Shown here piece after piece: positions 36,600 through 39,043 of a stretch of DNA of 64,000 nucleotides. A program made the translations under genes and the position numbers. Within the stretch, counting starts at the first letter, position 1. The number at the start of each line of letters is the position of its first letter. The notes beneath the pieces are model-generated. The model was not told the origin of the DNA. It did no database searches and was given only the letters and a program-made list of their open reading frames with translations. Source of the DNA: Hydrotalea sp. (GTDB lineage: Bacteria; Bacteroidota; Bacteroidia; Chitinophagales; Chitinophagaceae); the NCBI GenBank assembly GCA_027364735.1, contig DAHXOT010000023.1:62001-126000 (forward strand), written 5' to 3'.

Positions 36600-37535
36600 T
36601 TAATTATCGGGCATAATAAATTGTAAGTTTCTCTGAATCCCTTTCCATTTGGTTCTTTTTAGTGGAGAATGTTTAAAAAGAAAATTAAAGGTTTCTTCAT
36701 TTAACTCATGCCATTCCTTATTAGTAAAATTTAAAATTTCGGGAATAGGTGTAAACTCTATTTCTTTGGTAGGATTACTAAAGCGATTCCAAGGACAAAC
36801 ATCTTGGCAAACATCACAGCCAAATACCCAATTACCGAATTTTTCTTTCATCGAATTGGGTAATAAATCATCCTTCAGCTCTATTGTAAAGTAAGAAATA
36901 CATTTACTGCCATCAATAATTTTATTAGGAAGTATGGCATTGGTAGGACAAGCATCTATACATTTCGTACAACTTCCGCAATAATCTTTTGCAAAAGCAT
37001 CATCATATTTTAATTCAACATCAACAATTAAAGTGGCAATAAAAAAAAATGAGCCACTTCGTTTATTTATTAAATTACCATTTTTACCAATCCATCCTAA
37101 CCCCGATTTTACAGCCCAAGTTCTTTCTAAAACGGGAGCAGAATCAATAAAACCTCGACCATTAATTTCGCCAATATTTTGTTGTAGCAGAAATAAAAAT
37201 TCTTTCAATTTTTCTTTAATCACTTTATGATAATCTCTGCCAAAAGCGTATTTCGAAATTTTAGGCGAATCATCTTTTTGTTGTTCGGAGGGAAAATAAT
37301 TTTTCAGTAATGTAATAACACTTTTAGCTTCCGGAACTAATAAGGATGGGTTAATTCTCAGATCGAAATAATTTTCCATGTAGTGCATCTTCCCGTTAAA
37401 ACCTTTGGTTAACCAGCGTTCTAAACGTTTAGCATCATCCGATAATATTTCGGCTTTAGCAATACCACAAAAATCAAAGCCTAACTGTTGCGATAGTTGT
37501 TGAATAATTTTTGTATGATGATTTTTTAATTCCAA
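36600..37535 (-). CDS. queG: Epoxyqueuosine reductase
   Basis: 311-residue cobalamin- and iron-sulphur-dependent enzyme that reduces epoxyqueuosine to queuosine in tRNA anticodons. The N-terminal DUF1730-type domain ([32 protein letters not shown]) is followed by the cobalamin-binding core ([43 protein letters not shown]). Two 4Fe-4S motifs follow: [12 protein letters not shown], with [11 protein letters not shown] completing the set. The C-terminus ends without HEAT repeats, as in the short form. Neighbours are unrelated. Confidence 0.96.
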
Positions 37536-37592: not shown

Positions 37593-37976
37593 TTATTCTT
37601 CTAAATGTAGTTTATGAAAAAATCGATGTGCCATAGGTGCAATTAGTATTCCAATATTGGTTATAAAGGCAACACCACTAAACAGAGCATAAAATGATGA
37701 AAATAATTTTCCAATATCTGTTTTAATTTCTATTACCGGTCCCATTCCGCTTAATATCATTGAGGCATTATGTAAAGCATCCAGCCAACCCATTGGTCCC
37801 CAGTAATGATAGCCCAAAACGCCCATGCCCAAACAAATAGCCAAAATAAAAGTGGCAAAAAGAGCATTCCAAAACATTCTTTGTAAAAATAAATGTTTAG
37901 GTAAAAGTGCCTTTTTTTTGTGTTCAAAATTGAAGATAGATGAAGTACCAATCATTTTTCTAAATGCTTGTGCCAT
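37593..37976 (-). CDS. Two-helix pore-loop membrane protein resembling a K+ channel, filter not canonical
   Basis: 127 residues. TM1 is at about 37-57, then an amphipathic re-entrant segment (WLDALHNASMIL), then SGMGP at 76-80, TDIGKLFSSFYALFSGVAFI and TM2 to about 113, with a basic tail HRFFHKLHLEE. The order and spacing match the two-helix potassium channel module, where DxGKxFxxxYxLxG follows the selectivity filter. The filter TVGYGD is replaced by SGMGP, so potassium selectivity is doubtful. It may be a tetrameric pore for another ion or a channel-derived membrane protein. It follows the serine hydrolase gene by 5 bp on the same strand, so the two are probably cotranscribed. Confidence 0.65.
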   Translation of the reverse strand: MAQAFRKMIGTSSIFNFEHKKKALLPKHLFLQRMFWNALFATFILAICLGMGVLGYHYWGPMGWLDALHNASMILSGMGPVIEIKTDIGKLFSSFYALFSGVAFITNIGILIAPMAHRFFHKLHLEE

Positions 37977-37981
37977 AAATT

Positions 37982-39043
37982 CTATTTACAGTTGTTGGAA
38001 GAAAATTCTTGATCAATTATTTTTTTTAATTCGCTATAAATATTTTTTTTCCCTTCTCCTAAAATTGATTTCACAAAAAAAACAACGGCATAACCTCTGC
38101 ATCTATCAATCATAGGCCAAGTGCCAAATAATCCAGGCGAAGCTAAAACAGTACTATTGCCATTAGTATCTGTATCCATTATCCATTCGCCCAACCCATA
38201 AGTAAAGCCTTCGGCTGCTTTGGGTGTATATTTAATCATATCAAGCGTCATTTGCGGCTTTTCCATTTCAGCAATCGAGGCTTCGCTTAAAATTCTTTTC
38301 TCTTTAAATATTCCTTTGTTTAAAAGCATTATTAAAAAGTTTAAATATTCTTCTGCTGTAGATTTTGCTCCGCCGGATGGATCGGGAGGTAAATTATAAT
38401 TATCGTTTTGAAAAGTAGAAGTTCTCATGCCTAATGGTCTAAAAATTCTTTCTAACATTAATTGATTAAAGTTTCTTTTAGTAACAATTTCGCATACTCT
38501 TGCTGCAATAATAAAGCCCGCATTGCCATAAAAAAATCCTGTACCCGGATTAAAATCAATTTCTTTTTTTGATGCTAAGGCACTTACTTCTGCATCTAAT
38601 GAGGCATATTTACCTCGGTGTAAAATATTAAGGAATGAAGATTCATCTTGTTTAATTCCTGTTTCGTTCGATAAGCAATGTCGAAGTGTAATATAATTTT
38701 TCCCATAAGTGGCAAAAATGGGTAAGTATTTACTAACCTTATCATCTAACGAAATTTTTCCTTCATCCACTAAGGTCATTACCATTGCAGCGGTTAGCCA
38801 TTTACTGCAACTGGCAATGGGAATAGAAGTATGTTTATTAAAATCTCCCCAATTTTTATCATAAACAATCTTGTTGTTCTTATAAATTAAAACTGCAAAT
38901 TTTCCACCTAAATCTTTTTTATGAAAATCTAATTTCTTATCTAATTCTCCAAAATTATATTGTGCGAACGATAACTGAAAAAAAAGCAGGAAATTCAATA
39001 ATACACTGCTTTTGCGGCAGATTTGCTTATAATAAGATGACAT
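37982..39043 (-). CDS. Exported serine hydrolase, beta-lactamase/DD-peptidase fold
   Basis: 353 residues from the ATG at 39043; an upstream frame extends 21 codons but would spoil the signal peptide (SVLLNFLLFFQLSFAQ). The class C-like fold is shown by SCSK (SxxK nucleophile motif) in IPIASCSKWLTAAMV, the YGN of FFYGNAGF as the YxN motif, and a C-terminal region with TYGLGEWIMD. Family members hydrolyse D-amino acid peptides, esters or beta-lactams; resistance function is not implied. The channel-like gene follows after 5 bp. Confidence 0.9.
   Translation of the reverse strand: MSSYYKQICRKSSVLLNFLLFFQLSFAQYNFGELDKKLDFHKKDLGGKFAVLIYKNNKIVYDKNWGDFNKHTSIPIASCSKWLTAAMVMTLVDEGKISLDDKVSKYLPIFATYGKNYITLRHCLSNETGIKQDESSFLNILHRGKYASLDAEVSALASKKEIDFNPGTGFFYGNAGFIIAARVCEIVTKRNFNQLMLERIFRPLGMRTSTFQNDNYNLPPDPSGGAKSTAEEYLNFLIMLLNKGIFKEKRILSEASIAEMEKPQMTLDMIKYTPKAAEGFTYGLGEWIMDTDTNGNSTVLASPGLFGTWPMIDRCRGYAVVFFVKSILGEGKKNIYSELKKIIDQEFSSNNCK

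What the first reader, a model, noticed from the sequence alone, without database searches (positions are those of the whole stretch)
37593..37976. K+-channel-like pore with SGMGP in place of the selectivity filter
Two helices, a pore helix and DIGKLFSSFYALFSG follow the layout of a potassium channel, but TVGYGD is replaced by SGMGP. Such a family could conduct another ion or be non-conducting. It is probably cotranscribed with an exported serine hydrolase.
Basis: partly seen in the sequence, partly recalled or inferred. Interest (0 to 1): 0.5.

Follow-up and report, generated by a model that had tools for sequence, protein, structure and literature searches.

The report
Bacterial channel family with GMGP filter
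A small bacterial membrane protein built like the pore of a potassium channel carries a different, strongly conserved selectivity-filter sequence (GMGP), belongs to a widespread and apparently undescribed family, and has close copies in very large phages, so it may let ions other than potassium through.

Summary
The minus-strand ORF at 37593-37976 encodes a 127-residue protein. AlphaFold2 gives TM1, pore helix, re-entrant loop and TM2 with a confident core; the best PDB matches are NaK channel forms. Profile comparison with small GYGD channels gives 97.2%, E 4.4e-11. SGMGP sits where TVGYG should be: D66-to-G79 spacing is 13 in 98 of 98 usable family rows and in 12 of 12 GYGD channels. In 99 relatives G77 is kept in 98, M78 in 93, G79 in 98, P80 in 95, and the pairs tested show purifying selection. 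So it is a real family with its own filter. It occurs in Bacteroidota, a few genomes of another phylum, records of Thioclava, Gloeothece and Proteus, and two huge-phage contigs whose copies are sisters to the window's gene. I think it is a tetrameric, weakly selective cation pore, closest in design to NaK/CNG-type filters; TRPV channels share the letters GMG. Conduction and ion are untested. The serine-hydrolase link is confined to the window's clade. I found no description in print in ten searches of open-licence papers.

The parts
37593..37976 (-). 2TM/P-loop channel-like gene, 127 aa (P0001)
   Evidence: relatives
37800..37898 (-). TM1, residues 27-59
   Evidence: AlphaFold2 model
37752..37787 (-). 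pore helix, residues 64-75 (WLDALHNASMIL)
   Evidence: AlphaFold2 model; alignment with GYGD channels
37737..37751 (-). filter-position motif SGMGP, residues 76-80
   Evidence: conservation; spacing
37611..37718 (-). TM2, residues 87-122
   Evidence: AlphaFold2 model
37614..37628 (-). conserved H117-R118-x-x-H121 near the cytoplasmic end of TM2; possible gate or pH sensor (inference)
   Evidence: H117 92/99, R118 93/99, H121 94/99
37982..39043 (-). upstream co-directional serine hydrolase (Beta-lactamase PF00144) with a signal-peptide-like start; 5-nt gap to the channel; partner in the window's clade only
36600..37535 (-). downstream queG-like epoxyqueuosine reductase, 57 nt after the channel

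Best explanation
It is the pore-only (TM1-pore helix-TM2) subunit of a P-loop cation channel family with its own filter. Four subunits would assemble with both termini in the cytoplasm. G77-M78-G79 takes the place of T-V-G of the K+ filter; P80 and V81 take the place of Y-G. That keeps the backbone of the inner carbonyl layers, removes the threonine hydroxyl of the innermost site, and replaces the tyrosine-glycine pair that builds the outer sites, so I expect two or three ion sites and weak selectivity among monovalent cations, as in NaK and CNG-type filters. No acid is conserved in the filter, which speaks against a Ca2+-selective pore. The invariant P114 and the conserved H117-R118-x-x-H121 at the inner mouth, with E18 and R33 before and at the start of TM1, could form a cytoplasmic gate, perhaps pH-sensitive. 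Shown: frame, predicted fold of the subunit, homology, conservation, selection, distribution. Inferred: topology, tetramer, conduction, ion, gating.
For: Model with re-entrant loop. Foldseek PDB list headed by NaK and NaK-CNG mimics, probability 1.00 but E 0.024-0.14; VIA Z 11.7, rmsd 5.0, 95 aligned to 4zbm_B. hhalign 97.2%, E 4.4e-11 against 12 GYGD channels. The family profile finds NaK mutants at E 2.4e-4 and scores the one-residue-shorter CNG mimics (24.5 bits) above K+-selective NaK2K (19.3); the GYGD control profile prefers NaK2K (116.8) over CNG mimics (96.6). Loop from G79 to K90 one shorter than in GYGD channels in 83 of 98 members, window included. Filter conservation; purifying selection in the pairs tested. 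The NaK-CNG mimic TVGDTPP has three contiguous sites and serves as a non-selective model (PMC12376597, passages); NaK with two sites is non-selective (PMC9822992, abstract passage).
Against: No current, flux or structure. Pfam Ion_trans_2 is below its cut-off for this protein (13.2 of 22.5 bits). 12 of 98 members have the same loop length as GYGD channels and 3 are longer, so the short loop does not define the family. The structural aligner does not tell filter types apart: Z differs by less than 1 among NaK forms for this model, and the GYGD control model scores CNG mimics (11.8) and NaK2K (11.9) alike. Z near 11 for helical folds is only supportive by the tool's own note. A proline after GMG could also stiffen or close the filter.
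Confidence: 0.5

Rival explanations
1. A non-conducting descendant of a K+ channel: the pore fold is kept for assembly or for regulating other channels, and GMGP closes the filter.
For: Of TVGYG only the first Gly is kept. The genome has two other Ion_trans_2 proteins over the cut-off, so this one need not serve K+ flux. A relative about 95% identical in DNA carries a truncated gene.
Against: A dead filter should drift, but GMGP is among the most conserved stretches: G77 and G79 have the 5th and 6th lowest entropy of 112 columns, P80 the 12th, M78 the 18th. The family shows no constant partner gene, and two huge-phage contigs carry a copy, one intact.
Confidence: 0.22
2. Still a K+-selective channel that reaches selectivity with an unusual filter.
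For: Same superfamily and pore helix as GYGD channels; G79 aligns with the first Gly of GYG without a gap. TbIRK, described as a K+ channel free of the signature, exists (PMC5429665, abstract in search listing).
Against: Tyr and the second Gly are replaced by Pro and a hydrophobic residue, and four contiguous sites go with K+ selectivity in NaK2K (PMC9822992). The loop is shortened in most members.
Confidence: 0.15
3. A pore for another ion or solute (Ca2+, NH4+, H+), by analogy with TRPV channels that share GMG.
For: TRPV1 filter is 643-GMGD-646 (PMC7279265, passages).
Against: The acid after GMG is proline here; no acidic residue reaches more than 44 of 99 at positions 76-84 (E83). In TRP channels GMG was shifted relative to GYG in the alignment used by PMC8348670 (one passage), so the same letters need not sit at the same place. 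No TRP chain appeared in the profile search of the PDB at E <= 10.
Confidence: 0.1
4. Not a channel: a two-helix membrane protein with chance likeness to the pore.
For: Weak Pfam score and modest Foldseek E-values.
Against: Profile-profile E 4.4e-11; E 2.4e-4 to NaK in the PDB search; model and homology agree on the loop.
Confidence: 0.03

Closest known systems
NaK channel and its CNG-mimicking mutants (NaK-NTPP/DTPP/ETPP)
   Same: 2TM pore-only subunit; best PDB matches by profile and fold; filter loop of the window protein is one residue shorter, as in the CNG mimics
   Different: GMGPV instead of TVGDG / TVGDT; the conserved stretches before TM1 (E18) and after TM2 (H121, H124) lie outside the sequence-aligned part (profile positions 25-89)
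Small GYGD 2TM channels (Ion_trans_2; L025-L029, L058, L133, L134, L136-L139)
   Same: TM1, pore helix, GKLFxxxY start of TM2; 97.2% hhalign probability
   Different: T-x-GYGD there (T60, T61, G63, Y64, G65, D66 invariant in 12 of 12); they form one side of a 100/99 branch against the 99 family rows
NirBac channels
   Same: Prokaryotic members of the superfamily with a non-canonical filter, non-selective in flux assays (PMC4607889, abstract and parts of Results read)
   Different: NirBacs are Kir-type with a cytoplasmic domain and were a few rare genes with unlike P-loops; here a pore-only family with one filter shared by about a hundred sampled sequences
TRPV channels
   Same: GMG in the filter (PMC7279265, PMC8348670, passages)
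   Different: Six TM helices and an acid after GMG; no sequence match found; likeness of three letters only, probably convergent
Viral K+ channels: Kcv of chloroviruses, giant-virus and phage proteins annotated as potassium channel domain
   Same: Pore-only channel gene in a large virus (PMC7354518, abstract in listing); BFVD matches include pithovirus and tupanvirus proteins and one uncultured Caudovirales protein named 'Potassium channel domain containing protein' (E 0.46, probability 0.98), so a phage-borne P-loop protein as such is not new
   Different: Kcv keeps the K+ signature (recalled); the phage copies here carry GMGP and branch beside the window's bacterial gene. I could not read the filters of the BFVD matches

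Membership tests
K+ channel pore (Ion_trans_2, PF07885) | two TM helices around a pore helix and re-entrant loop | tested here: met
   (predicted subunit)
K+ channel pore (Ion_trans_2, PF07885) | score over the Pfam curated cut-off | tested here: not met
   13.2 against 22.5 bits for P0001; 29 of 49 members match at E <= 1, best 6.2e-6
K+ channel pore (Ion_trans_2, PF07885) | filter TxGYG(D) | tested here: not met
   0 of 99 members
K+ channel pore (Ion_trans_2, PF07885) | tetramer with K+-selective conduction | not testable with these tools
   no multimer prediction, no bench data
P-loop channel superfamily | detectable homology of pore helix and TM2 with known members | tested here: met
   E 4.4e-11; E 2.4e-4
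CNG-type non-selective filter | filter loop one residue shorter than in K+ channels | tested here: met
   window protein 11 versus 12; in the family 83 of 98 shorter, 12 equal, 3 longer
CNG-type non-selective filter | T-V/I-G followed by E/D-T-P-P, and a cyclic-nucleotide domain | tested here: not met
   letters GMGPV; the 127-aa protein ends after TM2
NirBac | Kir cytoplasmic domain | tested here: not met
   protein ends after TM2
TRPV | GMG plus acidic residue in the filter | tested here: not met
   GMG present; Pro in place of the acid in 95 of 99, and no acid in the other four (L, I, A, V)
TRPV | six TM helices | tested here: not met
   two TM helices

The most novel reading that the evidence does not exclude
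A hitherto undescribed branch of the P-loop channels whose defining GMGP filter conducts cations without K+ selectivity (reached independently of TRPV's GMGD), gated by a histidine/arginine ring at the inner mouth, and carried by huge phages of Bacteroidota as a tool that changes the host's membrane potential during infection.
Probability: 0.25. Interest if true: 0.8.

Novelty: new variant of a known kind. Interest (0 to 1): 0.6.

Why it matters
The K+ signature is among the most conserved motifs of membrane proteins. A family of about 100 sampled sequences that keeps the pore scaffold but fixes another filter is a natural experiment on what the filter must contain, in a protein of roughly 110-150 residues without further domains. 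The phage copies add a bacterial-virus parallel to the Kcv channels of algal viruses and ask what a huge phage gains from a host-type pore.

Tried and rejected
Fixed partner gene: rejected outside the window's clade. At 73 loci outside my clade list (one of them, L037, is from the window's own family; one, L073, was skipped) I found 141 immediate neighbours and scanned 99 of them, leaving out near-duplicates, very short frames and fragments; the commonest Pfam families occur in 3 of 99, Usp being one (25 of 159 families shown). NCBIfam: none for this protein; scattered weak hits among members. Phage records (INPHARED): no match to the window protein or to the phage copy. E. coli genomes: no DNA match to the Proteus relative. 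Promoter and terminator scan: 18 promoter-like sites against 15.7 expected, 2 terminator-like against 1.8; nothing usable. The second own-genome hit (E 0.07) lies in a 480-residue frame that reads like a respiratory-complex subunit, taken as a chance match. The idea that the family always has a one-residue-shorter loop: rejected, 12 of 98 are equal and 3 longer. A one-residue insertion in TM2 is placed by hhalign but not by MAFFT, so I do not claim it. TRP chains were absent from the profile list and from the 50 VIA rows shown; absence there excludes nothing. BFVD: best matches are giant-virus proteins (Pithovirus LCPAC302 E 6.6e-5, LCPAC304 E 1.4e-4); their filters could not be read here. No PHROG family for the phage copy. 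A viral-contig scan with the phage copy found only the same two contigs. Plasmid searches with the Thioclava, Proteus and Gloeothece proteins found only each other and themselves. Ten paper searches for a GMG or GMGP bacterial filter or a phage-borne channel of this kind gave none: (open-licence PMC papers only).

Full report
What is there. The minus strand of window 37593-37976 holds a 127-codon frame; frame 1 of the plus strand of that stretch is not open. Upstream on the same strand, 5 nt away, ends a serine hydrolase (PF00144, E 4.4e-44); 57 nt downstream begins a queG-like gene. The window lies in a 2.77-Mb, 54-contig genome in which this is the only convincing copy; two other proteins of the genome pass the Ion_trans_2 cut-off, with TTIGYMEV and TTVGYGRI at the filter.

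Homology. The single sequence matches Ion_trans_2 only below the cut-off (13.2 of 22.5 bits). With 49 rows (A1) the profile reaches NaK channel mutants in the PDB at E 2.4e-4, and against 12 small GYGD channels (A2) hhalign gives 97.2% and E 4.4e-11 over 55 columns. AlphaFold2 on A1: mean pLDDT 86.6, pTM 0.73, TM1 27-59, pore helix 64-75, loop 76-86, TM2 87-122. Foldseek against the PDB lists NaK forms first with probability 1.00 and E 0.024-0.14 in the 50 rows shown, none under 0.001. VIA gives Z 11.7 (rmsd 5.0, 95 aligned) for a CNG-mimicking NaK; by the tool's note a Z under about 13 for helical folds is only supportive. A control model of a GYGD channel found NaK forms at Z up to 14.5, rmsd 2.1, with CNG mimics (11.8) and NaK2K (11.9) tied, so the structural scores do not tell filter types apart.

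Where SGMGP sits. From the pore-helix Asp (D66) to G79 there are 13 steps in all 98 usable family rows and 13 to the first Gly of GYG in all 12 GYGD rows (the 99th row is a fragment; some rows are incomplete elsewhere). So G77-M78-G79-P80-V81 stand for T-V-G-Y-G. After the filter, G79 to K90 is 11 in 83 rows (window included), 12 in 12 rows and 13-14 in 3; it is 12 in all 12 GYGD channels. The family profile scores the one-residue-shorter NaK-CNG mimics above NaK2K (24.5 and 19.3 bits), the GYGD control profile the reverse (96.6 and 116.8).

Conservation. A profile search over all DNA fetched by then gave 123 different hits; I kept the 99 with score over 60 and dropped 24 (small GYGD channels, one GFTE channel, long frames, fragments). 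Among the 99, some incomplete: G77 98, M78 93, G79 98, P80 95, F92 99, P114 99, H117 92, R118 93, H121 94. Departures: GEGP (Thioclava plasmid), GNGP (two rows from the phylum of the Planctomycetota locus), GVGP (a broken copy), GMGL, GLGI, VMGA, and GQPV in Proteus mirabilis. The genome contigs retrieval used peptide patterns outside the motif. Codon counts of seven pairs show far fewer amino-acid than silent changes (several dS values are saturated, one pair gave no dS).

Distribution. Strong members: 29 of 149 genomes of the order, 44 of 395 in the phylum sample (overlapping genomes), 4 of 199 in the phylum of the Planctomycetota locus L023. The remaining genomes with matches in those calls (8, 83 and 7) score much weaker; those I read are small GYGD channels, one with GFTE, or long frames with other K+-type filters; most of the 83 were not read. 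Two of the other-phylum rows, L023 and L105, nest among Bacteroidota rows in the tree, so transfer or binning errors are possible. In plasmid records 4 of 72,556 match: Thioclava, Gloeothece and two Proteus mirabilis records of chromosome size; the first two are annotated 'hypothetical protein', and the one Proteus record that I opened has no annotation there. The tree puts the 99 members on one side of a 100/99 branch from the 12 GYGD channels; few columns, 37 of 109 inner branches open.

Phage copies. Two IMG/VR contigs (L103, L104) encode the protein, at 75% identity over 118 residues (L103) and 84% in the best segment (L104). Beside it lie a thymidylate synthase (phrog_160, L103) and a Clp-type ATPase (phrog_4871, L104); a further protein of these contigs has 107 relatives among viral-contig stretches (80 listed, contigs up to 368 kb) and weak ones in two uncultured phage records of 635 and 642 kb, which is why I call them huge phages. 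The two copies are sister to the window gene (98/86). One is intact; the other is frame-broken by a short tandem duplication in the held sequence (my reading). Of 80 marker-bearing loci only these two contigs hold the channel; many of the loci are short and may miss it. The comparable pieces differ mostly at silent sites (dN 0.04, dS 1.35).

Neighbours. The hydrolase lies within 60 nt upstream at 14 of 23 loci of the window's clade, with one gene between at two more; a relative of it lies somewhere in the held flanks of 20 of the 23 and of 0 of the 76 other family loci, whose flanks are mostly about 1.5 kb. Elsewhere neighbours vary: at most 3 of 99 scanned share a Pfam family; single cases stand next to an MscS-like channel, a bestrophin and universal stress proteins. 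I conclude that the channel has no fixed neighbour.

How it works. Best reading: a tetrameric, weakly selective monovalent cation pore. NaK (two sites) is non-selective and NaK2K (four sites) K+-selective (PMC9822992, passages); the NaK-CNG mimic has three contiguous sites (PMC12376597, passages). Replacing Y-G by P-V should remove the outer sites, and Gly for Thr the innermost hydroxyl (inference). NirBac channels show that prokaryotic relatives with other filters do conduct, non-selectively (PMC4607889, abstract and parts of Results read). TRPV1 shares GMG, followed by Asp (PMC7279265, passages), but in TRP channels the motif was shifted against GYG (PMC8348670, one passage), so I treat this as a likeness only. 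The pH-sensing role of H117-R118-H121 is a guess by analogy with KcsA (recalled).

Verdict. It is a new variant of a known kind: a P-loop channel family with its own filter, apparently undescribed within the searches I could run (open-licence PMC papers only).

Noticed in passing
L103:2500-2859 and L104:4989-5359: Huge-phage contigs carry close copies of the window's channel; the L104 copy is frame-broken by a short tandem duplication, the L103 copy is intact.
   Followed up: partly
L024:5001-10153: A relative about 95% identical in DNA has the channel cut after residue 51; the rest and the start of queG are replaced by about 4.85 kb with three long frames, two of which are 42-49% identical to the genes that follow the channel in other loci of the clade. 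Low-coverage contig, so a misassembly is possible.
   Followed up: partly
L073:1489-3330: The channel lies at the end of a 614-residue open frame; in the related L074 the upstream gene is a class I aminoacyl-tRNA synthetase ending 3 nt before the channel, so a read-through fusion or a sequence error.
   Followed up: no
L104:1742-3535: The phage Clp-type ATPase frame ends in a stretch (CFLSETQIVIRNKRTG...) that looks like the start of an intein (a recalled look, not tested).
   Followed up: no
L094:2440-3333: The Proteus mirabilis relative, next to a universal stress protein gene (PF00582, E 2.8e-30), has SGQPVEP at the filter, the most deviant member.
   Followed up: partly
L130:1996-2217: Broken copy (stops inside the match) in a genome of the same class.
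   Followed up: no
L093:2956-4262: Thioclava plasmid: the channel (GEGP) sits in a tight same-strand run after a patatin-like lipase and overlaps an MscS-like channel gene by 4 nt.
   Followed up: no
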